Assembly (NCBI GenBank): GCA_022113835.1
Contig: JAILWY010000001.1
Span: forward strand, 6,200,001-6,264,000
Direction: 5' to 3'
Source: Atopsyche davidsoni
Lineage: Eukaryota; Arthropoda; Insecta; Trichoptera; Hydrobiosidae
Length of the DNA stretch: 64,000 nt
This document shows positions 3,179 to 62,746 of this stretch, one piece after another. Every line of letters begins with the position of its first letter. The first letter of the stretch is position 1. The translations under genes were made by a program, and so were the position numbers. The notes under the pieces are model-generated. The model saw nothing but the letters and a program-made list of their open reading frames with translations, was not told where the DNA came from and ran no database searches.

Positions 3179-4515
3179 CTTTCAGGAATCTCGGCCCCTC
3201 TTACAAGTCGCGGGGCGCCACTGGAGCAAGGCTTTATTATCGTGTCAAGTGTCATTGCGGATTAGTCACGTGGATTTAATTATTTATAGTATGAAGAAAT
3301 TGCTTATTTACAATATTGGTTTTTAAATATATTTATGTTTTTAATAATATAAGAAAATCGCTTCTGAGCTGACAATAATATGTTCGGATTCATACTCTGA
3401 CAATTGAATAAAATACTAATTACCAAACATATTAATTAAATTTAGACGACGTCTTTATAAGAAGAAAGACTTTTCGCCAAGTAATTACCCTCACAAGTCT
3501 TTTGGTTTTATTTTCACATATAAAATAAAATTCTTCATGACAAATATCAATGCTGAATTCTTAATCTTATTGCAAAATTTCAACTATAACTCAAAAAACA
3601 TATTAAGTATATGCATGAATTATTTATTTTTAATTTAATTGAATATTGAAAATTTACGAACTTCGTTTAATATTATATTATATACAATTGAAAACAATTT
3701 AAAATATTTGTGAAATTAATTGTTTAAAAAAAAAAAATTCAAATTATTTTTTATTTATTTAAGAATATTATAAATTAAAAATTGGTTTATGTTTTATCAA
3801 CTGCACAGGTTTATACAGTAATATATGCTGTTTATGAAAAAAAAAAGTTTAACCAGGGTATTATATTTATACAAACTACGAAAACGTTTAAAACATGCAC
3901 ACGAGTATGATACGTAATGTCTTAAACGTCACACAGTCGGTCGCGATAAATAAGATAGCTATTTTAAAAATATTTTCTGTAAAGTATGTCCGTCATACAA
4001 TCTGGGAACTTATAAATATGCAAAGTAAGTAAAAATCCGAGTACATGCCTTACACGCAGAGAATCCGATAAGAGGGCATAAATGGATGTAAGAAATGAAG
4101 AAAATACAAGGGTAGCATAGTAAAAGTTCCGCCTTTTAACGCTTTTGCGGTTTTCTTGGTAATAGAAAAAGTATTCCAAAGCAAGTCTTCGAATATGAAA
4201 CGTTGGAAATATAAAACTTGTAGAGTTTAATATTTTCACGGTAGTTTTATTAAATACATGTTCAACTCGAAATGTTATACTCTCAATACGACCATTTAAT
4301 AGGTTTATCCAATGTGTAGTTAATCGATACAAAAGTTTACTTTATATATGTCAATATTCTTAGACGTGCTAAGGAATGCGAAACAGTAACTTAACGTGGA
4401 ATCATATATGAAAGAATTACGGTCGGAGAATCTAGCACAATGATACTCTTGAAAACGTTACATTGCATTGAGTTGGTTCATGCATGTGTTTTCCCATGTA
4501 TATTCGATAAATATA

Positions 4516-4702
4516 AATATAATGATAAAAGTACCTTTGTCATGCTTAACTAAACAGTTTAGTTAAGCATCTGATGATGACCCAGTGTATTGGGTCGAAA
4601 CTAGTAATGCAAATAATTTTAATATGAAGACAAAATACAAAGGTACTTTTATTATTATAATAATAGATCTTCATGAATCAAATGTCTTGTCCCTCAACAA
4701 GA
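4516..4702 (+). mobile_element. Hammerhead-bearing short retroelement, copy A
   Basis: This 187-bp element is the first of three related copies (A, B and C at 13902 and 32841). Its core is a hammerhead-like motif at 4567-4610, followed by an AT-rich tail shared with copy B up to CTCAACAA. The sequence ATAAATATA occurs on both sides (4507-4515 and 4703-4711), a possible target duplication, though the AT-rich context weakens it. The 5' part (about 4519-4553) is an inverted shortened copy: reverse complement of the tail joined to the leader before the ribozyme, meeting the direct copy at GCTTAACTAAAC/AGTTTAGTTAAGC. No protein is encoded. The structure resembles non-autonomous Penelope-type elements. 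Confidence 0.6.
4567..4610 (+). ncRNA. Hammerhead ribozyme-like motif (family 1, copy A)
   Basis: Read 5' to 3': stem I strand GCAU; core CUGAUGA; one extra U; stem II GACCC, an 8-nt loop, GGGUC; GAA; stem III AC-UA-GU (two pairs); H17 = A; stem I strand AUGC. All conserved hammerhead core positions (C3 U4 G5 A6, G8 A9, G12 A13 A14, a 15.1-16.1 A-U pair) are present. Predicted cleavage is after A4606. A two-pair stem III is known from hammerheads of Penelope-like elements, which are thought to work as dimers. The unpaired U between A9 and stem II is unusual. Activity is untested. Confidence 0.6.
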
Positions 4703-4711
4703 ATAAATATA

Positions 4712-7700
4712 TTTGTAATATTTTTAAAATGTCAATCCTCCAGTTTAATTTTTATTCTTTTAACTTTTACAAGCTCTATTTATTCAAACAAAAAGCTATA
4801 AATTTGTGATGCTTTAAAAAATATACATATTATTTTTATAATAGTATACTCTATATTTAAATTGTTCGGTCACAGGTAAAAGTTTTTTTTAATCCATTAT
4901 AAGTGGTGAACTATAAATTTGAGGCTGAAATTTCAAAGAATAAAACAATATCAATAATGAAACATTACTTATTTTGGAGATACTAAAATACCAATGAATA
5001 AATTTAAAATCAAGATAATTTATTTAATCTTTAAAATGTCAAAACATTGTTTGGACACATGATAAGGCAATCTAAGAAAGACAGACCCTTAGACATTATT
5101 TAAACATTCCAATATAAATATTTATTTAGGCATCCAAAAAAGACAAACTTTTAGACATTATTTAGCGAAAAGGCAATTAATTATTACCAATGTGATATAA
5201 CAATATGTTTTGTAGCAATAGCACTAGAATATGAACAACCAGACTTTTATGTATACCTATAATTAAACCATACAATTTATTAATAAGATTTTGAATTTTA
5301 AAAAAATGTATATACACCTGCTCAGCTTTTATTTTTACTAAACATATACAAATTTCAGTTATAGACAATAAGCCTCCGTACTGAATAAAAAATCATATCA
5401 TGAAAATGACCCGTTTAGGAGCTGGAGATAAGAAAAGCACGTCTTTTAGATAGTATCTGGAAGAAAAGGTTGTCCTTCCTATTCTATGTGGAGTTTTATA
5501 GATCGTCTTGGAGTATTTTTTTCTTATACCATACCGAAAGTTGAAATAACAAAGAAATTATATTATCAACATTGAACATTTCAAATATACTCTTTGAAAA
5601 CTTAGACTTATTTATAGTTATTAAAAATATATATACATTTATTATTTTTTTGGGAAATCTGTCGTTTTTATTGTAATGACAGGCGAAAAAAAAAATAACA
5701 GTGTAACATTGTGAGTTTTAGACTATCTTGGGTATTTTTTATATATAATTACTGACTCTTGTTTTACTTTACGTGTTTTTCTTATAACCGAATATATATT
5801 TTATTAAATTAAAATTTTCTGCATTAATGGTTAGTATTTTATTAGAAAACGTCACCATAAAAAGAACGGCTGCGAAAATTAAGAAGTATATATTTTTATT
5901 TGGTTTCAATAACAACCCCTTTCAATCGATCGGTATTACGACAGTATTATCTATAATGAGGAACAAATTTATATAATAGATTCTAAGGCATAAACCTAAA
6001 AACCACCCTCTCGAGTCTTAGCGCAAGCCTCTCTCAGCTGGGTGCAAAATTTTAAAAAGTGAAAGAGCTAATAAGGGAGAGAAATTTATTCGTACAATTT
6101 CGCGGGCCGTGGCTTACCGCAAGAGAGGCGTCAACCTCTCCCCACCCGAGCGGGGTCTACTGCATTCTGCATTCCGACTTTTAACCTTTTAATTAAAGTG
6201 TCAAACATAAGTCAACCGGTAGCGTCGCGCCGTATAAATTGCCAACATATCGCGCTGGGGTATTTAATTTTTAAGAAGTTGCTCTAGATTTATGCCGTGC
6301 CCCCCCGACAGGGTTAGGATAGTGGGGGAGGCTGCGGTGCTGGGTTATATCTTGCATGTTGTTTCTTCGCTGTGGGCTTTATAAGACAGCGTGGATTTAT
6401 TAGATATTAAATTAGGAGTAAGGAAAATAAATATGCTCACAAACAATATTGAAAACCAGTGCATGATGATTATGTTGGTAAATTCACTGTGAAATATTTA
6501 AAAAAAATATTTAGGTTTTTAGGCTATAAACAAAACCACCAGTTACAAAATATATATTTTGGGCACAAATAATATTTTGAATCTATTTAATCGTAGTTAT
6601 TTTTTGATTAAACAAAATAAGACATTGATATATTTATTCTAGTTATACTATTGGTGTTTTTATTTCTGCAATAACAATTAGATTTGTCTTTATCTGTCTG
6701 TAATTATAAAGAAAATAAAGCTATTACATTGAAATAATCTAAACCAAACTCTAATAAAATGTAAATATATGTGTCTATAAATTACTTTTTTTTAGTTTAT
6801 ATTTTAAGTTTATATAAATATCATAATATTTTTTAAATTAAATCTAATTTCTAAAAATACACTTGTTATGCAATGTTGAATTGCTTACTTAAATTTTAAA
6901 ATGAGTTATGTGTTTAAATTAACAAAAAACAAGTGTCTTTAAAACCACACAAAGTTTTTTAAAACATTAAAATTTATTCGCCTTCATCTGTGTTATTATT
7001 TAAACTACAGACAATATATTTTAACAAAAAAATCAATATCAAACAAATGTGTTCGTATAATATACAAAGATTCCAGCACAATAGACACAGTTGCGAGCAA
7101 AAACTCCTAACTCGCTTCAAACAGCACACAAAGGTCCTGTATGTGAATAACGCAAGACACAGAAATATTTCTTAGCCAATTCATCTTTATACAAAGCCAG
7201 CAGATAACGCAGCGGGCACAATGAAAGAGATAGCTTCGCAGATACTCGGCGCCGCAGCCTCACAATGCCGCGCCGAGCCTGCGAGGGCGCCGCGCCCGTC
7301 AATTAGCGCTCTCAATCTAGTAACAACGATATAATTGACGGAGATATACCCGAACGTGCACGTGCGAGCGTCTGGCTACACAGGGATTAACGGTCGAATC
7401 AAACTTTACAGCTTGTACTGCGATTTCAGCTTTCCTGAATTCCGAGGCTGTGATTTTTCCACTGGCTGTGTGCACAGGGTGTACCAAAAGCTACAGTCTC
7501 CACGAGTAAAAATAATTTATTTTTTTAAGTATGAACAATGACTGATTGTGGTTAAAACTTGGACGACGAATCAAGGAGTTTGAAATGTAGCCATATATGA
7601 AGTTGATCGCGTCACAAAGGAGTCTTGCACAGAATGAGAACTTATAACGTCAGTAAAGAAGCGGAAGTTCTCATATTTTGAACACATTTTTTGTTACCTG

Positions 7701-13202: not shown

Positions 13203-13889
13203 CTTAGGTAGAAATTGTGCCACTTTCGAATGCACGGACGCGGCGAGGCTGCGGCGCAGACATGTTCGTTCTGCCAAGTTTTTTTATGTTCCTCATCGTA
13301 AATGTCGCAGCATGATACGTGGCGCTGTCCCGACCTTAATAAGAGTACTTTGTTTCACGATAATCCTGCAGGTCTCGTGAACATTTATGCTGGAATACTA
13401 GAAACATATTTGCAACGGTACACCTTGCCTGTGTCTCAATAGTGCACAGATTATAACAGACGTGAGTATAGGATAACTAATAACGTGACAATAATATCGC
13501 TTTCATATAAAATAACTTACCAGTTGCGAATATATCTTACATGCTTGTAGCTTTATAATTATGAAACGCCACATTATCTAAACACGTTTGCTAATATATT
13601 TATTTTCTTGATATCTGTTTGTTTTAGTTTCCAATTGTCAAAATTTTTATTGTATATAAAGCCTTTCCATATTTATTATAAATACTAATGTTTAAATATC
13701 GATATGAACACCGCTACTCGTATTTATTTTTATTTTATTCAATTCATTTTAAATTTAATTAATTTAGTATTAAAAAACTTTTATTTTAAACTATTCCTAG
13801 TTATATTTTTCATCTCTCATCATTCATATTTTTTATTATTAAAATTAATATAAATGGTTATTTTACTATCTATAAATCAATGCATTAAA
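13203..13889. other. Noncoding stretch with an isolated splice donor
   Basis: No gene is supported. A perfect minus-strand donor CTG|GTAAGTTAT lies at about 13513-13523. Above it, a short minus frame starting ATG TGG CGT reads 19 codons into the donor, which would make a tiny first exon. Nothing else supports it. Confidence 0.4.
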
Positions 13890-13901
13890 CAATTTATTCG
13901 T

Positions 13902-14072
13902 ATATATAAAATTTAAGTTTAGTTATGCATCTGATGATGACCCAGTGTATTGGGTCGAAACTAGTAATGCAAATAATTTTAATAAACTCAAAGTGAAGAC
14001 AAAATACGAAGTTACTTTTATCATTATAATAATGGATCTTTACGAATCAAATGCGTTGTCTCTCAACAATAT
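13902..14072 (+). mobile_element. Hammerhead-bearing short retroelement, copy B
   Basis: This 171-bp element is bounded by a perfect 12-bp target duplication CAATTTATTCGT (13890-13901 and 14073-14084). From the leader GTTTAGTT through the ribozyme motif to CTCAACAAT it matches copy A at most positions, and it lacks the inverted 5' segment. Duplications of this length fit target-primed reverse transcription rather than a TA-specific DNA transposon. The 60-codon frame inside it is not a gene. Confidence 0.75.
13927..13970 (+). ncRNA. Hammerhead ribozyme-like motif (family 1, copy B)
   Basis: The sequence is identical to copy A across the motif: stem I GCAU/AUGC, core CUGAUGA, extra U, stem II GACCC/GGGUC with loop AGUGUAUU, GAA, stem III AC-UA-GU and A17. 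Identity of the motif beside diverged flanks suggests the copies derive from a recently active source. It could also reflect constraint on the motif. Confidence 0.6.
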
Positions 14073-14084
14073 CAATTTATTCGT

Positions 14085-17000
14085 TATTGCCAAACATAGA
14101 TTTCAAGAAGGCAAATGCAAAAGCTGAAAAATAGCGTTTTTTTAGATTAGTGTGTAGCTTGTCTAGTATGATTGTTCTTTAAAAATAATAAATTCTTAAG
14201 CCAAACATACATGTAAACTTCAATTCAATTTGTATGAAAAGTTCCATCAGTGCTGCCGTCACAAAATAAATAACTTCCACACAGGTACGTAATAAACCTG
14301 CAGTACTCAATTTGATATCGCAAAGACAGAAGCATAACCGTGTCACGGTGCATAAATAAAATATTTCAAATATAATACAACGGAAAAGATTCCTGAGGCA
14401 TGGTCGTAATAAACGAGAGGAACGAAGTCCTCCTTGCTCCGCCCTCACCGCGAACGGGATGTATCCAAATGTCGGCTCCTGGAAGGACATAAATATATTT
14501 ATGATGTACCGAGACAGCGGCGGTCCTTGTTTCAACTCAACTTCATAATATATTAAACTGTTACTTGGGAATTATCGTTTACCTAATGTCGTCAAATTTA
14601 AACTCGATTTTTGAATATTTTATTCACTACAGCTGCGTTTACGAGCGATAAATTTATATGACTCCTCTATAACGGAAGTTTCTCCAACTCTGTAGATATT
14701 AAATTAATAAGTGCGAGTATAAAAATTAGATGAACCGGATGTCCGGCGTGATAAAAAACCTCTTAAATATATACCTGCTTAACTTTATTATTGATGGAGC
14801 TATTTTGTGGAGAATGTTATGTTACTAACTGCTCAAGGTTTGTGAATTCTTTATCGATTCTAGTTCAGCTGTTTTTTAGCCCTTAACCAAATATATTTGT
14901 AGATTTTAAAGCTATTAAGGTGCTTTACTTATAGTGAAATAAAATAACTGCTTAATTGTTCGGTGAATAGTGAATTTTTTTCCAAAAATTTAAGGTTGAT
15001 GATACTGAAAACTTTATATTTTATGGAAATTATTCTTGTTAACTTACAAAACAATACATACTGCAATATTAAAAAGATAAATTATTAATATTAATGATCA
15101 ATATATTGATGTGTAGTTTAACAATGTTTTCAAATGTTTGACAAAATTGACAATAAGTTTTTCCGTCGTTATATATAAATCATTTTCCTTTTTTTTTTTT
15201 TTAAAAAATCATGAACTTACGTAAAAAAAAAAACTTCTTAAATATTCTTGTTTTTTTGGAATTATATTATTATTTAATATTGTATTCAACGTGAACATAA
15301 AGAATTTGATAGTATTTATGTTATCCTTCAACTAACATGTTTGAGATAAAAAAAAGTTGCTAGTTAAGCATGAGCAAAAAATATTGGTCTATATTGACGC
15401 TATAAATTTTTTTTCTCAAATTTATTTACAATAAACCTTATTAAAATAATTGATTCGAAATCAAAAATCCAAATTTGATAGTATAAAATACAATTAAAGA
15501 TATCAAATTATATATTTTATGACAAAATTCGTTTTATAACATATTTTTTTCAGCGTTCATGTTCGAAATTTTATATAAAAACTCTACTTCCCCAAATTTA
15601 TTTAATTTTTGTAATAGTACCTGTTTCTGGCAAAAATCGAAAATGAAATATTACGATGTGAGTCAAGGGTTCCATGTTAGAATACTTCATAGTTTTTATA
15701 TATATATAAAATGATTTTAAATAGTATTGTTTGTATTTAAAAGTTTTAAGCCCATTAACTTGTTTTTTCAGGTGACATTTTACAATTTATTTATTGACTA
15801 TATCTATATATCATTCAATTAAAATAGAGCAGCTCTAAATTTGTAAACTCAGCCGCTTTAATGTCAATTCGTTAATTTTACTATTACAATAAACACGTTA
15901 CTCCTAAAATATCAAGCAAGTATTATATAATTATCTTTTTTTATTAATAAGTTACAAGAAAAACCGTTCTACAGTACACCTAATAGTAATATATACGTCT
16001 TCACCGGCACACGCAACGTTTTTTCTTGCCTAGATTCTTTTCCGATCCTACTTCCCTCGAGGGTATTAAGCGTTGACGTCCATCGAAATGTAACGATGAA
16101 TATTTAAACATAATAAAGATCGATACTTGAACGCTCTGGCCTCTAATTTCGGTATTGCATGCCACAAATATGGCGGCCTGTCAAATTCTGTTAGCGGGCG
16201 TAGCTATTTGGTTCAAACAAAAAGTATGTGATTTTGTATGTGTTTCTTCGTTACAAAAAGATTGAGAAATATTTTTCATTTGATTTTAAGGCTTGATTTG
16301 ATTAACACATAAGAAATATACGAGTTGAAAAATGTTTTGAATTAATTGATTTTAGGCTTATTAAGAAATATTTTTTTATTCAAGAAGTGTGTGTATTATT
16401 TACATATAAATTTATTAAAAGCACTTGAAACAAATTTGGCATCATATTAACAAATAAAATGCTAGTCTGCATGTAAAATAACTGTCTAATAATAATATGA
16501 TATACTTAAAACAAAGTGCATCTTTAATTTCAAACGTTGTAAATGACAAGTTAAATGAATAGGACGGTCTGCCTGATCCTATTTTGTGGACGCAGCACAT
16601 TTTGTTGATTCGGTCTTATATTGAATTTTATCCGAGGGACCTCAGTCAACATCCGGTAAACTTTTTTGTAAAACATATTTGAACAGTGTTTAGCATACAC
16701 GGAACAAGCACATGTTTGAACAGTTAATTTAAATCTTAATTAAAAAAAACATGGCGGCCGATTGGCGCAGTTTCAGATCGATTATATCGGTACTTTTGGT
16801 GGCCGATCAAACAGAACGAAGAACATTTTCTGTTCACCACGGAATTCATTACAAACAAAATAAATCAACTTTTTTGAGATCATAGATTTAATTTGAGCAA
16901 CAGCTAAATAAGAAATCTAAATATAACCAGCACAATTTCTTTGATGGATTTTCGTAAGTAATAGCATGCCACGGAGCGCTAAATTACTCGGTTCGATATT

Positions 17001-20900: not shown

Positions 20901-21061
20901 TGTTAACATATGATAAAATACAAAAGTAAAATATTTAAATAACTGCATTTATCCATTGATAAAAATACAACATACAAATACTGGAATCTTTATAATTAAC
21001 AATAGATATAATTTATTGATAATAATTAAGTACATTTTTTCAAATATCGAAAAATGATTAG
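17946..21061. other. Noncoding stretch
   Basis: No gene is supported. A 96-codon AT-rich plus frame (18201-18491) and an 87-codon minus frame (18998-19261) have no context. A donor-like ACG|GTAAGATAC occurs on the minus strand near 19860 without a partner. Confidence 0.5.
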
Positions 21062-21180
21062 AAACTCTCAGAAAAATATCATCGTGATATGTGTAAGATT
21101 AGAATCCACATCCCCAAGCTTACATGGCTGGTGGATTACCAATTATGCCAACGAATCACTATTACTTGGCAAGAATTTTT
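21062..21180 (-). mobile_element. Old copy of tRNA-Thr-like SINE
   Basis: On the minus strand this aligns end to end, with roughly three quarters identity by eye, to the tRNA-like core and flanks of the element at 62.5-62.7 kb. Shared blocks are AGAATTTTT, the anticodon-arm region around CATGTAAGC, CCACATCCCC, and ATATCATCGTGAT beyond the 3' end. The B box is decayed (ATTCTAATC). No target duplication was found. Confidence 0.6.
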
Positions 21181-21367
21181 AATAATAATATCCTATAAGT
21201 GAAACAATGTACTTATTATGCCAATTAAATATTGTGTGTCTTGCAATACTAGACTTTTAACGTACTGAGTTCTGAGTACTGAGTGAAGTATTTAAATCAG
21301 ATCTGGATATTATTATTTTTAATGTCTATTTAATTAGGCCAATACACACACTTGATAAATATATTAA

Positions 21368-21488
21368 TGATTTTTTGTGAAGACCGTCTCACAGGAAGTA
21401 CGATTTTGCTTATACAGGTTTTATTGATTGATAATGATTAATTAAGGCAAAATCGTACTTCCTGTGAGACGGTCTTCACAAAAAATCA
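21368..21488. repeat. Foldback with 42-bp perfect arms
   Basis: Arms 21368-21409 and 21447-21488 are exact reverse complements around a 37-nt spacer. The arms contain GTGAAGACCGTCTCACAGG. It may be a foldback MITE or a snapback copy of a longer transposon end. If transcribed it would give a long perfect hairpin able to feed a small-RNA pathway. I found no second copy in this window. Confidence 0.75.
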
Positions 21489-21915
21489 ATAATATAGATA
21501 TAATTTACTTTAAATCAAAGGATGGTTCCCTTAAGTCCTTAGTTTCAATTTTTCAATAAAGTCTGGTAACAAATTCATGAATAATTATATAATTTTTGTA
21601 GTCTCCTCGACGTTATCATCTTTAAAAGTAAATGTTAGAAACCTATAAAAACCAAATATACTTCTTATTGCAGCAACGAAAATACAAGGAAGTTGTAATT
21701 TAATATCACAATGAATTTTTGAAATCCCAGTCAAAACCATCGTTTTTATTTTCAACTGCAAAACATAAACTAGTATATCCTGAGAACAAACTTTCAAACA
21801 AAAAAAAAAAAAAAACAAGCTGTTTTTTCCGTAAATTAGGCGATAGCTTTCCTGTTTTCAAAACTAAAAAAAAGAAAGTAAGCACAACAAGCGAAAGTTA
21901 GAGTGCAAAACTCAC

Positions 21916-32830: not shown

Positions 32831-32840
32831 AAACTATTAA

Positions 32841-32950
32841 GGTAATGATAAAAAGTAACTTTGTATTTTTGTCTTCACTTTGAATTTATTAGAATTATTT
32901 TCATAACTAGTTTCGACCCTATACACCGGGTCATCATCAGATGCATGACT
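32841..32950 (-). mobile_element. Hammerhead-bearing short retroelement, copy C
   Basis: This 110-bp element in minus orientation is flanked by a perfect 10-bp duplication AAACTATTAA (32831-32840 and 32951-32960). It begins a few bases before the ribozyme motif and ends after TTATCATTACC, so it lacks the longer tail of copies A and B. The shared part matches them at most positions, including AAAGTGAAGACAAAA. It is the shortest clean insertion and defines the family's minimal unit. Confidence 0.75.
32902..32943 (-). ncRNA. Hammerhead ribozyme-like motif (family 1, copy C)
   Basis: Same core as copies A and B: CUGAUGA, extra U, GACCC/GGGUC (loop GGUGUAUA), GAA, AC-UA-GU. Here H17 is U instead of A, still a permitted cleavage base, and stem I is reduced to CAU/AUG. 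Stem II pairing is kept although the loop has changed. Confidence 0.55.
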
Positions 32951-32960
32951 AAACTATTAA

Positions 32961-34044
32961 AGTGTTTTAAAAATATGAATTAGTGACGAAAAATAAGAAT
33001 CCAGTTTATGTTCAGCAAATAGCGATGGGACGTAGAAATGGGAAATGTACAATAGGAAATGTACAGTTTCTTGTTCCAAGCTTTTCCATGAAAGTGAAGA
33101 GAAAATAAATAATTTTAAATTTTATAAAACATCTTCTATAACTCCCAACGTTCTCGTGTAAAAATATACATAACATCTCTCAAGATTTTGCTTTTATGAA
33201 CCGAATAATAAAAAAAATATGTCTAATTCAATATCTGTAAGAAGATCTTGTATATTTTGTTTTGATATATGTTCTGACACAAAATAATAGTATTTAAATT
33301 TATTCTCCAAGTTTAGTTTTATCTGAAATAAGAAAAAAAGGAAAGCCTAGTTTTTTGTACATTTATTAGGAAGCAGGTGCTGTTTTATTTTTCCACTATA
33401 CAAGTAATTATGTATAACCAGAGCAGTCTAGAAGAGTGGCATTTTCTTTATAAAAATGCAAATTCTAAGACGGGTTTGATAAATTGATTGCTTATGGAAA
33501 GTACCAGGCGAGAAAATAAGGGTGCAGTACAGCCCTCACAACTTTAATGTACGCAAAAGAACAACCCCAAACTTTAAGTATTCATTCGAGAATAAATCGA
33601 TTTTCAAGCCATTATAAATTAAAATGAAATGTTAATTTAATCATTGCGAAGTTTTTTAATATCGCAGACAATATTGCAAATAAGGTAAGAAGGCTATTGT
33701 AAGTTTACAGATTTTTTAGAGATCAAAACACTCGGTATTATGAAATATTCATATTTATGTTTATTTGAAAATATTAAAAACATACTTTGCAGATTTTTAG
33801 ATTAAAATATAGTAGATTATTTCATAACAAGCACATGTCATATTTTTGATTAAGAAAATTTTTGAATATTTTTCCTATTAACGCTTTGTTTTCAAAATAT
33901 CACAATGTATCAAACACAAGATATACTATAAATTGCATTTAACGCTATATTAATACGTATACTATATTTTTCTTTGATATATCAATTTTAAGTAAATAAT
34001 TACAAATTTGATCACCTATTATAATCTAAGCATTTATTTTTATT
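32961..34044. other. AT-rich noncoding stretch
   Basis: I see no gene, repeat or regulatory signal that I can support here. Confidence 0.5.
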
Positions 34045-34046
34045 TA

Positions 34047-34898
34047 CGGTGTGTGCATTAACTTTTTCAGATTTTTTCGTGAAATTGGAGCTTTATTATA
34101 AAAAATTGGTACAATATATTCTATTCAAAGTATTGTCCATCGCTAGCCACTACATTTCCCATCTTTCGGGCAAATTATGGATTCTATCCCAAAAGAACTG
34201 TTCGTCTTTTGAAGCCAAGAAAGAATCAAGTTAATTTTTGATACCCTGTTCAGAAGTGAAGCGTATTCCAGAAAGGGCATTCTGCATCGATTTAAACAAG
34301 TGGTAGTCGGAAGGGGCAAGGTCTGGGCTATAACTTCACAGCATCACCTTGGCGCCATGAATATTTGGCCTGGCCGTCGATGTTGGTGCATGTCCGGGCT
34401 AACCCCATGATTTTTTTACGCTTCAGATTGTCGTAGCGAATCCATTTTTCATCACCAGTGATGATACAATGCAAAAATGACTTCTTTTTGTGGCGTTCAA
34501 GCAGCATTTCCGAAATGCAAAATTGCCATTCGACGTCTCTCAGCTTCAATTCATGTGGCACCCGATTTCTTTGCTTTTGAATCATTCCCAATGCTTTGAA
34601 GTGTCTTGCAATTGTTGCTCGATCAACTCCCACACAACAATCAGTGACTTTCAGCTGGTTTTTTCTTCCAACTGAAACAGAAAAGTAAAGCTTCCCGCAA
34701 ATTGCGTTTTGTTGGTACAAAAGTTGACATGTTGAAAGCTCAAAAAAAAAGTTGTATACACATCAGCGATATGACATTTACTGAAAACAAAAGCGCAATA
34801 ATGACGCTTTACAATGAAATGTTAAAGTATAGTCTGATCCGATTCAATACTAGTAACGTCATCTCTTTGAAAATTCGAAAAAATTAATGCACACACCG
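34047..34898 (-). mobile_element. mariner (Tc1/mariner) element, decayed copy 1
   Basis: An 852-bp element on the minus strand flanked by TA duplications (34045-34046, 34899-34900). The termini are inverted repeats starting CGGTGTGTGCATTAA. It carries a broken transposase (34121-34730). Compared with copy 2 it lacks 188 bp of the helix-turn-helix region but keeps about 54 bp more leader. Tc1/mariner elements move by cut-and-paste into TA. This copy could be moved only in trans. Confidence 0.95.
34121..34730 (-). pseudogene. Mariner transposase pseudogene, copy 1
   Basis: Starts at ATG 34730 (MSTFVPTKRNLREALLF) and hits TGA after about 29 codons. A 188-bp deletion follows, so the reading continues in another frame as DRATIARHFKALGMIQ...VPHELKLRDVEWQF...ITGDEKWIRYDN. 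The first catalytic Asp (TGDEKW) is intact. An extra A after KRKK shifts the frame. The centre of the catalytic domain, with the second Asp (HDNARPH in relatives), is deleted, with a stop at the junction, and PDLAPSDYH with the third Asp then resumes. It ends KVVASDGQYF-type before TAG. The 130-codon open frame inside is an artefact of these lesions. Confidence 0.9.
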
Positions 34899-35005
34899 TA
34901 TATTATTTAATAAAGTTATGAAGTTATTAAAAGACAAAAGTATCTTCTAGTCTATTGGCTTTTCATATATGTTATAAAATATGAAGCATTACAAATGAAA
35001 TCAGT

Positions 35006-35350: not shown

Positions 35351-35545
35351 TTTCTGTTAACTGAACTGCATCAACTGCGGGAGCTTCCTGGAAGATTGTG
35401 CTGTTATTTGTTATAATATATGCAGATACACCCCTGTATCTAAAGTCGATTTTTTCGACAATTGTATTTTTAAAATAATCTTAAGCTTAACCTTTTCATG
35501 ATGATGGAATATTGGGTATCTTATCATTTACGAATTTAAGATACT

Positions 35546-35862
35546 TGAGTGATTTTCCACATTTTTATTTTTATTAGTGACCGGTTTCGCCAACCTTTCA
35601 CGTTGGCATTATCAAACAGAGTGAGATTTTATATAATAATAAGCAATTAGGTAAACAATTGTTAGAGGGAGAGGTTGTTGGAAAAAGAGAGAATGCTTAT
35701 TATTATATAAAATCTCACTCTGTTTGATAATGCCAACGTGAAAGGCTGGCGAAACCGGTCACTAATAAAAATAAAAATGTGGAAAATCACTCAAGTATTT
35801 TATTCAAAAATATTAAAATGGAATTCCACCAAGTACTCTCTGTCAAAAATATTGAATTTCTT
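35546..35862 (+). mobile_element. Inverted hammerhead-like retroelement, family 2 copy 1
   Basis: This 317-bp insertion has a perfect 13-bp target duplication AATTTAAGATACT (35533-35545 and 35863-35875). Its 105-bp arms (35541-35645, 35694-35798, the first overlapping the duplication) are complementary except for one base, around a 48-nt spacer. A tail follows on the right, ending CAAAAATATTGAATTTCTT, shared with the 60.3-kb copy. Each arm contains a hammerhead-like core. There is no coding capacity. Common 3' ends with different 5' ends and 13-14 bp duplications point to target-primed reverse transcription of a dimeric or template-switched RNA. Confidence 0.75.
35722..35762 (+). ncRNA. Hammerhead-like motif with U3-A8 core (family 2)
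   Basis: The core reads UUGAUAA, extra U, stem II GCCA.../...UGGC, then GAAAC-CG-GU-C. Compared with the canonical core, C3 is U and G8 is A. These two positions pair in hammerheads, so U3-A8 keeps the pair. Stem III is again two base pairs (AC/GU) and H17 is C. The outer pairs of stem II are weakened in this copy by one substitution (C35746). The left arm holds the same motif inverted at about 35577-35617. Stem I pairing is short (about two pairs), so this is less certain than family 1. Confidence 0.4.
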
Positions 35863-36083
35863 AATTTAAGATACTAGAATATTTTTTATCATAAATATTG
35901 AACTGCTACTAAAATTGCTAGTCATAGTTTTTTTATGAATCAGAAATAAAATTATTAAAAATATTTAAGCATGAAAAATATATTCATAAAGTATGCAAAA
36001 GCGTAAGCCGGCTGACATATTAAGTTTCGCAAATAAAGTCATACTTTCTCCCTACAGCGCAATACATTCCAAAGCAAACTTAC

Positions 36084-54000: not shown

Positions 54001-54851
54001 ATATGTTTAAAAGTATTCTCCATTAATTTTATTTAAAGTTAATTACAATAAACACAATGTCCGTAACTCGACCTGCCGGTATATTTCCATTCATTGACTA
54101 CTTACTCGTTGTCTGTGCACTTTCATTTGATGATATGGATTAGATCCTGCCCGTCGGGAAGCACAAAAACTCATTCACTGGGGACATCAAGTCAAGCGGA
54201 CGATTGAAGACTACGCTGCAAGAAACTTGAGATGCTGCGGAACACCATGTCATAACGAATACACGAAACCTTAAAAAATATGGAGAGTAAAATAGTTCTT
54301 GAGTATTACTTGGATAAGATAAAATTTAGGGCTATCTTTTTTGCAGATTTTCTAATACTAATGTACTTTTGTGATATATATATACTTATATATACCCATT
54401 GTACTCATTCCTAACAATCAAGTTCGCTAGCTAGTGTATTTTTTAAGAGAAAAGCGGATCCCTTGCCACCAGCAAGTCCTGCAAAAGAGATCGTTGTTTA
54501 CGGTCGCGGTGGTGGGCTTGGCTGATTGGTATTTACGTTTATTTGTAAGGGAATGTCGAGCTGCTGATCAGCCCCCGCGCCGGCCATGGCTGCGGTACAA
54601 CCACCCGCTTTGGGGATAACACTCACTCCGGTGGCGTTGTATATCCACAGTACCTAGTTTTTATTAACTAATCTGCTACGTTTATTATTCAGTTAAAATT
54701 AAATAGATGCTTGCTTCACCAATCACAACTCTTTATTATTTAATAAGTATTTTTAGTTTACTGAAAAATAAGCATATTTTGTTTTATTAATTGTGAAGTA
54801 TAAAGACGTGACGATAGTACTTATACAAATGTACTAATGTGTAATAAACTA
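51086..54851. other. Noncoding stretch
   Basis: No gene is supported. The GC-richer patch at 52030-52330 holds a 95-codon minus frame (51950-52237) open further upstream, interrupted by a donor-like GGAAG|GTAATA. Without an acceptor I do not call it. Patches at 52960-53110 and 54440-54640 have single frames of about 60 codons. Confidence 0.45.
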
Positions 54852-54853
54852 TA

Positions 54854-55839
54854 CGGTGTGTGCATTAATATTTTCGGATTTTCTAAGAGATGGCGTTACT
54901 AGTATTGAATCGCATCAGGCTATACTTTAACATTTCATTGTGACAACATAATTTTTTTAACTCTCAACATGTCAACTTTTGTACCAACAAAACGCAATTT
55001 GCGGGAAGCTTTACTTTTCTGTTTCAATTGGAAGAAAAAACCAGCTAAAAGTCACCGATTGCTGTGTGAAGTTGATGGTGAACATGCTCCATCGCAAAAA
55101 ACGTGTGAGAACTGGTTTCGACGCTTTAACAGTGGTGATTTCGATGTGGATGACAAAGAACGTCCAGGCCAACCAAAAAAATTCGAAGATGAAGAATTAG
55201 AGGCATTGCTCGATAAATACTCGTGTCAAACGCAAGCAGAACTCGCAGAATCATTGGGAGTTGATCGAGCAACAATTTTAAGACACTTAAAAGCATTGGG
55301 AATGATTCAATAGCAAGGAAATTGGGTGCCACATGAATTGAAGCTGAGAGACGTCGAATGGCGATTTTGCATTTCGGAAATGCTGCTTGAACGCCACAAA
55401 AAGAAGTCATTTTTGCATCGTATCATCACTGGTTATGAAAAATGGATTTGCTACGACAATCTGAAGCGTAAAAAATCATGGGGTAAGCCCGGACATGCAT
55501 CAACATCGACGGCCAGGCCAAATATTCATGGCGCCAAGGTAATGCTGTGAAGTTATACCCCAGACCTTGCCCCTTCCGACTACCACATGCTTCAATCGAT
55601 GCAGAATGCCCTTTATGGAATACGCTTCACTTCTGAACAGGGTATCAAAAATTAGCTTGATTCTTTCTTGGCTTCAAAAGACAAACAGTTCTTTTGAGAT
55701 GGAATCCATAATTTGCCCGAAAGATGAGAAAAAGTAGTGGCTAGCGATGGACAATACTTTAAATAGAATATATTTTACCAATTTTTTATAATAAAGCTCA
55801 AATTTCACGAAAAAATCCGAAAAAATAATGCACACACCG
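54854..55839 (+). mobile_element. mariner (Tc1/mariner) element, decayed copy 2
   Basis: A 986-bp element flanked by TA (54852-54853, 55840-55841), with inverted termini CGGTGTGTGCATTAA... that match copy 1. The two copies point in opposite directions about 20 kb apart. It has the same internal deletion of the catalytic domain as copy 1 but retains the N-terminal region. It is followed directly by a short AT run (55841-55852). Confidence 0.95.
54969..55766 (+). pseudogene. Mariner transposase pseudogene, copy 2
   Basis: ATG 54969 opens MSTFVPTKRNLREALLFCFN and continues through the paired helix-turn-helix region (residues 1-114, including SCQTQAELAESLGVDRATIL) to a premature TAG at 55311, replacing the AAG of copy 1. 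The same frame continues VPHELKLRDVEWRF to KSWGKPGHAST and GAKVML. The first catalytic Asp is lost (TGYEKW for TGDEKW). The following segment with the second Asp is deleted, with a TGA at the junction. PDLAPSDYH retains the third Asp. It ends VVASDGQYFK before TAG. Full-length mariner transposases have about 345 residues, so roughly 80-100 are missing. Confidence 0.92.
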
Positions 55840-55852
55840 TATATATATATAT

Positions 55853-56512: not shown

Positions 56513-59500
56513 CTGCAGAAAAGGCCGAAAATGGAGAAGCCACGAAAAGTTAGCCCTGACTAGAATGAAACGTTTATAAATATTTTTGTTGAATATTAGA
56601 GCAAAAACATTTGCGGTAGAGACTTAATAATACCCAAATAAAGATTATCGGATACAATAACTAAGTTTCAATTTTTAAGCAGTACATGTAATGGGTTAAG
56701 AAACTTATTTTAAATTGTTTTATCTGTGTATTTTACCCTAATGTTCACCACTCTGTATTTTAAAACAAATTATTTGACATAATTTAGCATATATATTAAT
56801 TGTATGTGTGTTATATTAAAGTGATAAAATTTTTATGTATTTCTGAAATTAAACGTCTCTATAAAAGAGCTTCATCATTATTTAATTTTAGTTATTTGAA
56901 ATTTAGTTAATGGTTTAAAAAAACTGCTAGCATTTAATGTATTGAGTTATTAAAGCTTCAACATAAAACATATTATAAGTCATCGATCAAATTATAAGAA
57001 GAGTAATTTTCAATGTTATTTATAAAAACATATTTAATAGATTTATAATCTATTTTTCCTTGTCATCATTTGCATATCTCTTTAGTAAAACAGAAAACAT
57101 CAGCGTATGCTACATTTAAAAATATTGGTTTTTCTTACTTTTTATTTTAAAAAATACTGGGATGTGAGGCTGTCTTAGTATGCGATGGGATTATTGTGTT
57201 AAGTATTTTTTTATCATGTTACAAAAAGATGTTTGATAGTGGTAAAATTCAAACATCGGTTGAACGAAATATCAATACGTCTTGTCGGTTTTTGTATCAT
57301 TCCCTTCGAATGATTAATGTTATTGAAATATGATCATTTGTATAGTTGTTGAAGTAGAATAGACATAATAAAAACACCTGCTGTGATTTTGAATGCTTTA
57401 CTTCGGGTATATTAGGCAGCTGCTTTGCAGAAAAGCTCTGTTATACTACTTAAGTTCCAAAGAAAGATTTTATTATAAAAGTGTACATATAATATGTGTA
57501 TGAAGACTATTATATCTATGTTATATATTTATATAAGTGGCTTGTATTATACTTTAATGCTTTAAAAAAAGCTCCAATAATAAAATTTAGATTTTTTTTT
57601 TTTAATCAGATAAAAAGTTTATTATTGGAAAAAATATTATAATATTGTTAATTCGTTAAAAGGATGATTATATAAATTAAAGAAGATTTTCATTATGTCA
57701 ATATAAAAACTACAAAGTTATCTACGATGCTACATACTTTGATTTTCAAAACAACTTTTTAGGAGCCATTGAAAATAAATAATGTAAACTACAAACCAAA
57801 AACTATCAAGAATAATATTTGTAAATACTTAACAAAAACTAATAATGCTTTATAAATAGTATATGGTTCTATCATTACAAATTATGTTGTATTCAGTTGT
57901 ATAAATAGAAAATCGAGGTTATTCGTTCGCTGTATACCTGTTTAGGAACGATCAATTTTTTAAAGCACCAAAGCAATAAATCAACCTTGTGATATAATTC
58001 CAATTGTTGTTCCTACAACATCTTTATTGCCAAATAAAAGAAAACACAAAGCCTTACACTTCCAACATAGCGCCTTTTAATTCGTCCATCACCGTTGGCT
58101 TTTGTACGGGCAACAATAAATAAAGCCCATCTCACTTATCGAGCAGTCGGGGCGGGGGCGAGGGCGGGGGCGAGAAAACAAGGGGTTGAAGGAGCCCGAA
58201 GTGGGGCAAAAAATAAATAAAAAAGGGAAACGGAAGAAAATGTGGTCGAAAAAAGTGGGTAGCAATTTATTTAGTGGAGAAGCGCGGTAGACAGATGAAC
58301 TTGCTCGGTAGATAATGGAGGAGCTCGCGCTCCGGGCCGCCAGGGCCTTCACACGGCGCGTCTAATGAACCCTATTAATGACTATTTCTGCATCGCACTT
58401 GTTTTTTCAGATTTGTTATTTAGACTAAATATATACGCCTGCCGATTTGCGTGAGATAAGTTATTTTTGGCATATTCTTCAGCAGTTGATTGAAGGACCT
58501 TGTCTTTCAAGTAGTTTGTAAAATCTATACCTGCAAGGTATATTTTTAAAATTGTTGTTTTTTAAAATAAGTATTTTAATATATATTTGATTTAATTTTG
58601 TTGAGGAATTTTGTTCAATCAAATAAAACTCACGCGAAATATTTAAAAAGTTAAATAGTTACCTTATTTATTATCATATTTGATTTAACTAAATTCATTC
58701 AAATAAGTATAGAACTTGTAATAAAATAAAACCAAGTGGTTTTGGAGACTACGTTTATTTCACATGTAGCGAGAGCTCTTTCGCCGAACGCGGCATCTTT
58801 AAAACTGAGTCTATACAGAAAAAAGCGAGCTTGTACATAACAAATTCAACAGAAATACATAAACGTGTTACAAACATTAAACGAAAAAGTCCAATAAACA
58901 TCAAAATACAATATTTTTTTATAAGAATATTTTACTTCCTAGATTCAGAACTTTTATCGTAAAAATTTATTTGTGGAAACAGTTATACATTGCATTAAAA
59001 TAATTAAATGGTTTTAGATAATTATTTGACTCCTCGAATTTGTCACTTTATAAAAGTGATTTATTTTTCTAGAAAATAAAACAGATGGAAAAATCACAAA
59101 AGTATTTTATTTAAAATATTTATATTTGATTGTATCAATTTGTTTGTAAAAATAATATACTAATGTAATGAAGAAAAAAAAATGTCTACAGCGCTATGCA
59201 ATATGTAATATATCTGAATAAATAGAATATAATAAATATTTTAAAAATACAATAAATATTTTTTATATTTATATAAAATGCATTATGTTCTCGTATAAAA
59301 GTCAAGATATTTATCACAAATTGAATAAAAGTAGTACGTTTATTTAAAGTATTTATTAAAAAATATCATTTATATATTTTAATGATTAAATTGATTGTAG
59401 GATTGCGTTTTTAAAAACTTATGTTTTGAAATAAGCCATTTCGACCAATGTAACCAATTTATCTTCAGTGAACGTAAGTAAGAATCAAAACAATATTATC

Positions 59501-60247: not shown

Positions 60248-60261
60248 TTAAACTTATTTAG

Positions 60262-60493
60262 ATATTTTTGAAGAAAATACTTGAATAATTTTCCACATTT
60301 TTATTTTTATTAGTAACCGGTTTCGCCAACCTTTCACGTTGGCATTATCAAACAGTTTGATAATGCCAACGTGAAAGGTTGGCGAAACCGGTTACTAATA
60401 AAAATAAAAATGTGGAAAATCACTCAAGAATTTTATTCAAAAATATTAAAATGAAATTCCACCAAGTACTCTCGGTCAAAAATATTGAATTTC
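60262..60493 (+). mobile_element. Inverted hammerhead-like retroelement, family 2 copy 2
   Basis: The element is bounded by a perfect 14-bp duplication TTAAACTTATTTAG (60248-60261 and 60494-60507). The 66-bp inner arms (60288-60353, 60355-60420) are exact reverse complements around a single A, and diverged pairing extends outward. The right tail CAAGTACTCTCGGTCAAAAA...GAATTTC matches the 35.5-kb copy, while the left breakpoint differs. No ORF is present. The near-zero spacer would make a very stable hairpin. Confidence 0.78.
60355..60395 (+). ncRNA. Hammerhead-like motif with U3-A8 core (family 2, copy 2)
   Basis: UUGAUAA, extra U, GCCAAC...GUUGGC (six pairs, loop GUGAAAG), GAAAC-CG-GU-U. 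Stem II is complete here, unlike the 35.7-kb copy. H17 is U. The mirror copy occupies 60313-60353 on the minus strand. In a folded transcript the two arms would pair with each other and compete with the ribozyme fold. Confidence 0.42.
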
Positions 60494-60870
60494 TTAAACT
60501 TATTTAGCATATTAAAAATTTCATCTGAGATAATTATATAATAAAATAAATTCATTGTTAACGTTATGCGGTCAGTCCTTAATTAACAACGTCGAAGGTT
60601 CAGCAAAGTCTTTACTGTAATAAACGGTTTAATAGGTGCTCTGGAAAAAAATCGGTTGTTGAAAAAGACAAGGTACAGGGTCTATACTTCATGGCACAAG
60701 TAGAATTGGTTTTACAAATAGTTCTGCACAACAAGGTGATTACTGAAGTCTCAAAATCAATACTTACTACAAATAGTACCGAGCATAGCATACACAGCAT
60801 TACCGTAGACCGCAAAACAACTACAACACTTGAAGCAAGAGCTCAAATCAACTCCCGCCTCCCATGCCAG

Positions 60871-60934: not shown

Positions 60935-62499
60935 GTAAGTATCGCTGATGGGTGCGCCCGCCCCTCTCTTTCCCTCCTCGCGAGAAGCCTACAAAAAGTA
61001 ATTGGATGTTGCTACAGAACTTTAAAGGTTTTTGCTAGTTTCCAAGACTTACAAACTAGAAGTTGCTAGAATAATATTTTGCTGGCTAGAATGCGCTAGT
61101 TGGAGCTCTTGAGGTATGAAAGTAGAACAGTTACTTAAAAAAATATTTTATGCTAGTTAATAATGCAAACTCATCACCATTTTTAGAATCAATTTAAAAG
61201 ATAATTTAGCTTGTCTATCCTTCTACATTTTTTATGCTGAGCAATGAGGTAAACACGATTTTTAATTATTCTTTTATAGATAAAATTGAAGCATTAAATA
61301 AATAGTTCGTTTTTAAGCGGATGTAAAAAAATATTCAAATATAGTGTTTGTTTTACCATGTAAATTGGATCATGGCAGAAAAACCAGTTAATAAATAGTT
61401 ATTTACATTTAAAGCTCATATTAATATTCGTTCAAATAACTGAAATACAATTTTTATTAGAATATTATTATAATTCTCATGAAATTCAAAGTACACTTAA
61501 AAAGAAAAATTTGTGTGAACCACAATGTTTTGGGTGGACTTCTTATGTTCATCATCTTTTTTTTATTAAAATGTACTATGTATTGAATTTTTTTTTTCTG
61601 AACAGATATATTAGATATACTTAATAGAATTTTTAGTACTCTGCGCATGTAGTGTTATTTTAAAATACAACCTGTAGTTTTTTATCGTATGAGATAATTT
61701 TTTTTGTTTTGACCCCCGAAAATTTTCGGCATGGTGTTAATATGTTAACATAAAGCATATTATTATTTTTGTGAAATCATGCAAAACTATTGCTAATGCC
61801 ATTATTAAACAGGATGTCTAATCGGTCCGGCTTCATTAGTCCGGCACCTGAGAGGGCAGAGCCGCAGCCATAACTCAGCGGGGCCCGCACTCGTCCTGCG
61901 GCCCCCATTATCTAAGTTGCCGGTTTGTTTCCCGCAACGCCGGGCTGCGGTCGCGACTGATGCTGGGGGCCTGCGGGGCGGCATAGCTCTTCTGGACAGC
62001 TTGGAGTTGCATTGTTTTGGCTGTGATTATTTTGATATACTTACCCTTGAGTACCACGCGAGAAGTATTTCTTAACTTATCAGTATTTTCAAATTATCCT
62101 CGACAAACTGGTATACAAAAAAAACATTATTATATTACATATTGTTTCTAAATACTTTAATGTGAAGCATTACAAACCCATTTAAGTTCAAAAACAAAAC
62201 ACGCTTTTCAATAATGTATAGATAAAAAGCATATTTTTATCAAAATAATTATTATACATGCTGATTATATCAACGGTAGAAAATAAAATCAACGCATCGA
62301 AAAAGCTATGTATGGTAATACTTATTTAAATAAGGAGATTAATACGAAGATTGTAAAAATATAATACATTTATGAAAATACTAGGTGTTGAATGATATTA
62401 ACTTATGTTTACTTAATCATTTGGAAACTATGTTAAGTGTTTTAAAATATAAACAAGTTTATTTATAAGATACATTTATTATTTACTAATATAATTAGG
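60935..62499. other. Noncoding stretch
   Basis: No gene is supported. The GC-rich patch at 61820-62000 shows no frame with paired splice sites. A minus donor-like CAAGG|GTAAGTAT lies at about 62041-62052. The motif GCTAG recurs several times at 61030-61160. Confidence 0.5.
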
Positions 62500-62746
62500 C
62501 ACATTAGTTCACACATAGAATATGATTAAAAATAATAAAATAATAATTAAAAATATCACCGTGATCTGTGTGGGCATATGTAGAGTATGATTGTTAAAAA
62601 TTCTCGATTAATGGATGTGGTTCGTTAGTACAATGGTCAGTACACCGGCCATGTAAGCCTGGGGATGTGGGTTCAAATCCCACACAAATCACGATGATAT
62701 TTTTCTGAGAATTACTTTAATCATCTTCTATGTGTGAACTAATGTG
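62500..62746 (+). mobile_element. tRNA-derived SINE inside a foldback element
   Basis: A tRNA-Thr-like core (62614-62691) lies inside outer inverted repeats CACATTAGTTCACACATAGA (62500-62519) and its exact complement (62727-62746). Inner repeats AAATATCACCGTGATCTGTG (left) and CACAAATCACGATGATATTT (right) also pair, and the right one overlaps the tRNA 3' end. The left half thus carries an inverted fragment of the tRNA 3' end plus tail. A degraded relative lies at 21062-21180 without the outer repeats. Internal A and B boxes would drive RNA polymerase III. Confidence 0.65.
62614..62691 (+). pseudogene. tRNA-Thr(TGT)-like sequence of the SINE
   Basis: The T arm is perfect (GTGGG-TTCAAAT-CCCAC) and the B box reads GGTTCAAATCC. 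The anticodon arm is CCGGC-CATGTAA-GCCTG with anticodon TGT, but position 33 is A instead of the near-universal U. The acceptor stem pairs at five of seven positions. It resembles insect and vertebrate tRNA-Thr around TGTAA...GGGG. The defects make a working tRNA unlikely. Confidence 0.65.

What the first reader, a model, noticed from the sequence alone, without database searches (positions are those of the whole stretch)
13902..14072. Short TSD-flanked retroelements built around a hammerhead ribozyme (family 1, three copies)
Three loci (4.5, 13.9 and 32.9 kb) share a motif with every conserved hammerhead core base, a two-pair stem III and an unpaired U before stem II. Copies B and C are bounded by perfect 12- and 10-bp duplications, so the unit is 110-190 bp and has no ORF. 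Penelope-like elements are known to carry minimal hammerheads with short stem III. A family this small, with the ribozyme near the 5' end, looks like a non-autonomous derivative.
Basis: partly seen in the sequence, partly recalled or inferred. Interest (0 to 1): 0.85.

Follow-up and report, generated by a model that had tools for sequence, protein, structure and literature searches.

The report
Ribozyme-bearing ends of Penelope-like retrotransposons
The short repeats with a hammerhead-ribozyme-like RNA motif are cut-short copies of one end of a self-copying genome parasite (a Penelope-like retrotransposon) that still has long, uninterrupted relatives in the same genome, so they are a known kind of thing, here abundant and well preserved.

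Summary
Observation confirmed. Three copies share a hammerhead core, a palindromic two-pair stem III (ACTAGT) and an unpaired U; 0 of 300 shuffles gave such a motif. B and C have 12- and 10-bp target duplications. Rfam's hammerhead models miss it.

The Penelope link is now shown. The host genome (370.7 Mb) gave 2,092 first-look candidates for the unit. Locus L099 carries the unit in both pseudo-LTRs of an element with an 826-codon open frame (RVT_1, GIY-YIG), an inverted left arm and a 13-bp duplication. The unit's 3' end is that element's first 13 codons.

So a separate non-autonomous family is not the best reading: these are very short insertions of an autonomous element. In 39 sampled copies the ends are not random: 35 lack pseudo-LTR sequence upstream, 24 are close head-to-head twins, and the twin arm ends near the short site in 20 of 24, at the long site in 0 of 24, with one exception at greater distance (L068). 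This fits internal start of reverse transcription at two sites, primed from both DNA ends. An unrelated second family repeats the plan. Self-cleavage is untested.

The parts
13890..13901 (.). copy B, left target-site duplication CAATTTATTCGT
13902..13915 (+). copy B, 14 nt between the duplication and the family unit; its origin is open (in most of the 40 scored genome copies the match to B begins after or within it)
13916..14072 (+). copy B, family-1 unit (157 nt): 3' part of a pseudo-LTR, ending in the ORF start ('tail')
13926..13971 (+). copy B hammerhead motif: stem I 13926-13930/13967-13971, core CUGAUGA 13931-13937, unpaired U 13938, stem II 13939-13944/13951-13956, GAA 13957-13959, stem III AC 13960-13961 / GU 13964-13965, H17 A13966; expected cut after 13966
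14032..14072 (+). copy B, first 13 codons and two bases of the element's ORF (MDLYESNALSLNN); L099 reads MDLHHANALSLNN
14073..14084 (.). copy B, right target-site duplication
4516..4555 (-). copy A, inverted left arm that ends near the short site and lacks the hammerhead core
4556..4702 (+). copy A, family-1 unit; hammerhead core 4571-4606; 9-bp TSD ATAAATATA (left copy at 4507-4515 or 4513-4521, right copy at 4703-4711)
32841..32950 (-). copy C, unit ending near the short site; hammerhead core 32940-32905; TSD 32831-32840 / 32951-32960
35546..35862 (.). family 2, head-to-head twin (left arm 35546-35645 minus, spacer 35646-35693, right arm 35694-35862 plus); 13-bp TSD 35533-35545 / 35863-35875; core UUGAUAA with U3-A8 in place of C3-G8
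60262..60493 (.). family 2, head-to-head twin (left arm 60262-60353 minus, right arm 60355-60493 plus); 14-bp TSD 60248-60261 / 60494-60507

Best explanation
The units are very short insertions of an autonomous, GIY-YIG-carrying Penelope-like element (PLE) of the host. Shown: the unit is the 3' third of this element's pseudo-LTR; it carries a minimal type I hammerhead motif and ends 13 codons into the RT-endonuclease ORF. Many copies have TSDs of 8-15 bp; there are two preferred 3' ends about 40 nt apart and a nearly fixed 5' end just upstream of the hammerhead; head-to-head twins are common. Inferred: the element's protein cuts AT-rich DNA and starts reverse transcription inside the RNA at one of two sites near the ORF start, as shown in vitro for the Anolis PLE (PMC11167929). 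It copies back through the hammerhead and usually stops at a defined point 15 nt before the core, most simply the 5' end of the transcript. When both DNA ends are primed, the two cDNAs join and leave a head-to-head twin. The hammerhead was uncleaved in the template wherever the whole motif was copied, which is so for the sampled main copies. With its palindromic stem III it is expected to work, if at all, as a dimer formed by two pseudo-LTRs of one transcript. My confidence of 0.9 is for the PLE origin; for the stop at the transcript end about 0.45.
For: L099: 13-bp TSD, inverted left arm of 79 bp, 468-bp pLTRs 98% identical, 826-codon open frame with RVT_1 (E 1.3e-10) and GIY-YIG (E 3.7e-5), unit in both pLTRs, ATG at unit position about 118. 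Its 810-residue ORF has 415 relatives at E up to 0.001, the best at 40-41% over the full length; the named ones among the 120 listed come from insects. 12 of 12 endonuclease loci returned (L087-L098; L087 is the L073 locus) carry a unit or part of one within 1 kb. Three loci have an 826-codon open frame. L073/L083: TSD GTTCTATTT, inverted pLTR, endonuclease end, pLTR, tail. 39 sampled copies: 24 twins with an arm within 60 nt; arm 3' ends at 108-118 in 20 of 24 and at 154-157 in 0 of 24; TSD of at least 8 bp in 23 of 39 against 8% for mismatched flanks; 4 of 39 continue upstream with pLTR sequence. Family 2, unrelated in sequence, has the same plan: 1,875 candidates, 40 scored, 19 with an opposite-strand head-to-head partner within 90 nt in the table, partner ends at 89-101 in 14 of 19 and at 137-139 in 0 of 19 (my tally).
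Against: The 39 copies are the best-scoring ones, so full-length units are over-represented and 5'-truncated ones missing; counts of ends are not genome-wide. In 16 of 39 no TSD of 8 bp or more was found. L068 has an inverted copy 92 nt away that does reach the long site, against the short-long rule; my 60-nt limit left it out of the 24. Several arms are internally deleted or rearranged, so a clean join is not universal, and two arms (L067, L074) begin within about 2 nt of the expected cut, which could mean cleaved templates. No transcript data: the RNA 5' end is inferred, and I saw no well-placed TATA box. L099 belongs to a subfamily whose unit is 82% like copy B; the copy nearest to family 1 with an endonuclease (L073) is broken. 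No relative bears the name Penelope, and no tree was built.
Confidence: 0.9

Rival explanations
1. A true non-autonomous family (SINE- or retrozyme-like): the short unit itself is transcribed, possibly circularised by the hammerhead, and mobilised in trans by the PLE enzyme.
For: 2,092 first-look candidates, fixed ends on both sides, 35 of 39 without upstream pLTR, low divergence (1.5% outside the ribozyme), 39 of 54 sequences with core, stem II, stem III and H17 intact. Metazoan repeats with type I hammerheads are 150-450 bp, with TSDs when present (PMC7229834, passages).
Against: The ends coincide with functional points of the autonomous element (inside the ORF start; just before the hammerhead). 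Apart from one partial direct repeat (L068) no direct tandem was seen in the 39 loci, whereas retrozymes are tandem repeats. Rfam's models of classical hammerheads miss the motif.
Confidence: 0.2
2. The fixed 5' end is a reverse-transcription stop caused by the folded ribozyme or its stem I, not by the end of the RNA.
For: The stop lies 15 nt before the core, and several left arms skip the ribozyme wholly or partly (A, L050, L072, L083), as expected if the fold hinders the enzyme.
Against: A stop caused by the fold should fall at its 3' foot, which the enzyme meets first, not after the whole motif has been copied; in family 2 the twin at 60262-60493 turns two bases before the core.
Confidence: 0.25
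3. The hammerhead match is a by-product of conserved PLE sequence (ORF overlap or protein-binding site) and has no ribozyme role now.
For: Across the three window copies the ribozyme region is not better conserved than the rest (12 of 168 against 15 of 190 differences pooled over pairs, p 0.84; A-B alone 1 of 56 against 9 of 89, p 0.09). In the genome sample stem II varies at 2.4% against 1.5% in the rest. A frame is open through the motif in A and B. Covariation is slight. In the Anolis PLE cleavage-dead ribozymes still insert in vitro (PMC11167929).
Against: Two unrelated families share the architecture, with palindromic stem III, the unpaired U and, in family 2, the compensated U3-A8 core pair, a natural variant whose covarying pair is active in vitro (PMC3088659). 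Variable columns of the window copies avoid 23 constrained columns (p 0.034, post hoc); core bases vary at 0.8%.
Confidence: 0.25

Closest known systems
Penelope/Poseidon-type PLEs with GIY-YIG endonuclease (Anolis PAc, PMC11167929; Adineta Pen2a_Av, PMC3846280)
   Same: pLTR-ORF-pLTR, single RT + GIY-YIG ORF, hammerhead motif near the ORF start (PAc), two alternative 3' ends ('tail'), inverted pLTR at the 5' side, palindromic head-to-head junctions, short TSDs, AT-rich targets.
   Different: In PAc the ORF starts at stem II and the cut is 26 bp inside it; here the ATG is about 65 nt downstream of the expected cut. In Pen2a_Av the pLTR holds 12 codons without the tail and 22 with it; here the short site lies at the ATG and the long one 13 codons in. 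Most sampled copies here are only the short unit.
Minimal type I hammerheads dispersed in metazoan genomes and in PLE pLTRs (Cervera and de la Pena 2014; Lunse et al. 2017; seen only through passages of PMC7761336 and recall, neither paper was held)
   Same: Very short or missing stem III, expected to cleave as dimers, found both dispersed and in pLTRs.
   Different: Here dispersed motifs are tied to PLE insertions with TSDs; family 2 has the U3-A8 core variant.
Metazoan non-LTR retrozymes (PMC7229834, passages)
   Same: Small non-coding repeats with type I hammerheads and TSDs.
   Different: Retrozymes are tandem repeats that give circular RNA; here copies are single or head-to-head and the 3' end is PLE coding sequence.

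Membership tests
Penelope-like element (PLE), EN-containing | single ORF with RT and C-terminal GIY-YIG endonuclease | tested here: met
   L099 open frame of 826 codons: RVT_1 at 362-543, GIY-YIG at 721-759, both above the Pfam cut-off. Not in the window copies themselves, which are too short.
Penelope-like element (PLE), EN-containing | pseudo-LTRs in direct order, often with an extra inverted one | tested here: met
   L099: 468-bp pLTRs 98% identical and a 79-bp inverted arm; L083 inverted arm.
[quoted passage not shown]
   arms end at unit 108-118 in 20 of 24, main copies at 154 or 157 in 39 of 39, which the search favoured; L068 is an exception.
Penelope-like element (PLE), EN-containing | phylogenetic placement with PLE reverse transcriptases | tested here: inconclusive
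   415 relatives at E up to 0.001, names generic ('reverse transcriptase', 'uncharacterized'), named ones from insects; no tree, no reference PLE.
Hammerhead ribozyme, minimal type I | conserved core, stem II, A15.1-U16.1, H17 | tested here: met
   39 of 54 sampled sequences intact.
Hammerhead ribozyme, minimal type I | compensatory changes in stems | tested here: inconclusive
   2 of 13 pairs with both sides changed (reached by 185 of 500 shuffles), 5 cells (reached by 6 of 500), few independent events.
Hammerhead ribozyme, minimal type I | score above an Rfam hammerhead model | tested here: not met
   no hammerhead family at E up to 10; a phage motif is matched by Hammerhead_3 at E 1.2e-5, though below its gathering score.
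Hammerhead ribozyme, minimal type I | RNA self-cleavage | not testable with these tools
   needs in vitro transcription of monomer and dimer.
Metazoan retrozyme | tandem direct repeats of a 150-450-bp unit with type I hammerhead | tested here: not met
   no full direct tandem in the 39 sampled loci (1.35-kb stretches); one partial direct repeat in L068.

The most novel reading that the evidence does not exclude
The short units are a distinct, dominant class of PLE product, the counterpart of strong-stop DNA: reverse transcription starts inside the RNA at one of two sites near the ORF start and runs to the 5' end of the mRNA, which begins just before the ribozyme. Twins arise because both DNA ends are primed, with a strong tendency that one end uses the short site and the other the long site. 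If so, thousands of insertions record the mechanism of the third class of retroelements in vivo, and many 'dispersed minimal hammerheads' of animal genomes are such inserts.
Probability: 0.4. Interest if true: 0.6.

Novelty: new member of a known kind. Interest (0 to 1): 0.4.

Why it matters
In the paper I read, insertion by a purified full-length PLE protein was shown in vitro for one element. This genome holds two unrelated PLE-type families, each with about two thousand first-look candidate copies, and the sampled ones are young enough for exact ends to be read. Both show two 3' ends, one-short-one-long twins and a fixed 5' end. That makes the internal-initiation and two-ended-priming model, and the unexplained role of the ribozyme, testable by counting ends and by mapping one transcript.

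Tried and rejected
Rejected: chance match (0 of 300 shuffles). A DNA-transposon or MITE reading of the inverted repeats in A and family 2 (TSDs of variable length, unequal arms, RT-bearing parent). Self-cleaved RNA as the usual template: of 24 arms two (L067, and L074 before a rearranged piece) begin within about 2 nt of the expected cut, the main copies include the whole motif; truncated copies were not sampled, so a minor use is not excluded. Strong purifying selection on the ribozyme was not seen.

Led nowhere: Rfam. Motif scans of viral and prokaryote contigs for both families (0 hits). A looser viral scan gave 35 loci, 21 with at most 3 stem II pairs, among them a phage group unrelated to this finding. 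Protein look-ups with the short N-terminal and endonuclease pieces; the full L099 ORF later did find relatives. PDB by sequence (nothing significant). The count of short against upstream-extended copies stayed open: the extended form gave 34 exact matches, the short form did not complete. A scan for GIY-YIG motifs in the loci fetched by then found only L073/L083. Papers not held: PMC4209133, PMC8557442, PMC5785218 and one DOI that I recalled wrongly.

Full report
OBSERVATION. The window holds three copies of a unit with a hammerhead core, at 4571-4606 (+), 13931-13966 (+) and 32940-32905 (-). Stem II is GACCC/GGGTC, extended by one or two pairs in A and B; stem III is AC/GU closed by two bases, so that ACTAGT is a palindrome; one U is unpaired before stem II; stem I has 4, 5 and 3 contiguous pairs in A, B and C. 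A search for core plus stem II plus AC..GU plus H gave 3 hits in the window; allowing the core pair U3-A8 gave 3 more, all in a second repeat family; neither form gave a hit in 300 dinucleotide shuffles. The bare core is expected 0.36 times per 64 kb, so the stems carry the significance. Rfam shows no hammerhead at these places at E up to 10 (family 2); the same tool matches a phage motif to Hammerhead_3 at E 1.2e-5, itself below the gathering score. TSDs of 9, 12 and 10 bp for A, B, C and of 13 and 14 bp for the family-2 loci exceed random expectation.

ANATOMY. Copy A is head-to-head: an inverted partial copy that ends at ...TATCATTATA joins the direct copy at AAAC-A-GTTT. Copy C stops near the same short point; B and A run about 43 nt further, in B into ATGGATCTTTACGAATCAAATGCG. 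Family 2 (35546-35862, 60262-60493) is unrelated in sequence (no match better than E 0.04) but has the same plan: U3-A8 core, GCCAAC/GTTGGC, palindromic ACCGGT, twins with one short and one long arm, and an ATG shortly after the short end. U3-A8 is a reported natural core variant (PMC3088659, section on core variation read).

GENOME. The window lies in an unnamed 370.7-Mb genome of 80 contigs. Copy B as query gave 2,092 first-look candidates; 40 were scored. I fetched 39 of the 40 (all but B itself). In these, 24 have an inverted partner within 60 nt (a few of the partners are matched over under 45 nt only); the partner's 3' end falls at unit position 108-118 in 20 of 24 and at 154-157 in none, while the 39 main copies end at 154 (10) or 157 (29), as the search favoured. 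Outside the 60-nt limit L076 has a short-ended partner about 200 nt away, and L068 one 92 nt away that reaches the long site. TSDs of at least 8 bp are found in 23 of 39 (8% among mismatched flanks), of at least 9 bp in 17 of 39 (3%). Four of 39 (L055, L068, L073, L081) continue upstream of the unit with pLTR sequence; for the other 35 no such match abuts the unit, and their similarity begins at unit position 1-4. Including 15 arms, 39 of 54 sequences keep core, stem II, stem III and H17; divergence from the majority is 0.8% in the core, 2.4% in stem II, 1.5% in the rest and 5.8% in the 5' foot, where one position is polymorphic. The family is young, and there is no clear sign of stronger constraint on the ribozyme as a whole.

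PARENT. Upstream of the unit L073 encodes ...SGIYRIRFNDCPLSYIGQTARNFKIRL... (Pfam GIY-YIG, E 0.0055, below the cut-off alone). The wider locus L083 is TSD GTTCTATTT, inverted pLTR, endonuclease end, pLTR, tail, TSD. A search with the adjoining coding piece gave 174 first-look candidates, 150 scored, 83 matches; three have an 826-codon open frame. The 12 loci returned (L087-L098) carry a unit or part of one close by. One 5-kb stretch, L099, shows the whole plan: TSD TTAATGTATTTTT, 79-bp inverted arm, 468-bp pLTR, 826-codon open frame with RVT_1 and GIY-YIG above cut-off, second pLTR ending in the unit. The ORF begins MDLHHANALSLNNI; copy B reads MDLYESNALSLNN in its tail. The 810-residue ORF has 415 relatives at E up to 0.001, best 40-41% identical over the full length; the named sources among the 120 listed are insects such as Parnassius, Diabrotica, Schistocerca and Cacopsylla. 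An alignment of 16 units (3 of the window, 12 from 11 of the 12 endonuclease loci, 1 of L099; L089 and a second, partial unit of L091 left out; 14 distinct) gives 92% paired cells, against 14-45% when the partners are slid, and two pairs with a change on both sides (stem II C-G to U-A; stem III C-G to U-A). Shuffles reach the paired percentage and the covariation score in 6 of 500, but the number of such pairs in 185 of 500. This agrees with the fold; few independent events stand behind it.

MECHANISM. In the Anolis PLE the protein cuts AT-rich DNA, extends both strands and starts reverse transcription inside the RNA near the ORF start, at two sites that explain the optional 'tail'; the ribozyme is not needed for insertion in vitro and cleaved only when protein was added (PMC11167929, main text read). 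In a rotifer PLE the inverted pLTR, the one-sided tail and palindromic junctions are described (PMC3846280, passages read). The present copies fit this in detail. What I add as inference is that the nearly fixed 5' end marks the end of the RNA template, so that the commonest product is a short cDNA from the internal start to the transcript end. Left arms that skip the ribozyme wholly or partly (A, L050, L072, L083) suggest that the fold hinders copying at times. That stem III is a palindrome in both families suggests dimeric cleavage, as proposed for such motifs (PMC7761336, passages read; Lunse et al. 2017 itself not seen).

VERDICT. A sound observation and a good guess at the relatives. It belongs to the PLE kind; the 'non-autonomous family' is better read as very short insertions of the autonomous element. 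The host was not identified; insect relatives of the ORF and a mariner fragment (HTH_48) suggest an insect (inference).

Noticed in passing
35533-35875 and 60248-60507: Second PLE-type family: head-to-head twins with TSDs of 13 and 14 bp and a hammerhead-like core with U3-A8; 1,875 first-look candidates in the genome. Its parent element was not found.
   Followed up: partly
59073-59120: A 49-nt stretch 84% like the post-ribozyme part of family 2, perhaps a decayed fragment.
   Followed up: partly
34042-34903 and 54850-55843: Two mariner-type copies in opposite orientation, about 95% alike, longest open frames 144 and 134 codons, HTH_48 in the second.
   Followed up: no
62477-62769 and 21060-21195: A foldback element (54-bp inverted ends) that contains a tRNA-like sequence scoring 54.5 bits; a 77% relative lies at 21060-21195.
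   Followed up: no
21355-21501: 55-bp inverted repeat, 95% complementary, with 37-nt loop, MITE-like.
   Followed up: no
4567-4806 and 13876-14124: A frame is open through the hammerhead motif and into the ORF start in both A and B (80 and 83 codons, running into the flanks); A lacks 9 nt relative to B, in frame.
   Followed up: partly
L002, L006, L011, L012, L013, L015, L018, L019, L020, L021, L022, L025: 12 of 35 viral contigs share a hammerhead-like motif (CTGATGATGGCTGTTAGGCCGAAACGGGT, or a related form in L021); in L015 it matches Hammerhead_3 at 32.6 bits, below the gathering score, just upstream of a small ORF.
   Followed up: partly
L044-L082: Left arms of twins that lost the ribozyme by internal deletion (e.g. 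L050, L072), and two arms (L067, L074) that begin about at the expected cut.
   Followed up: partly
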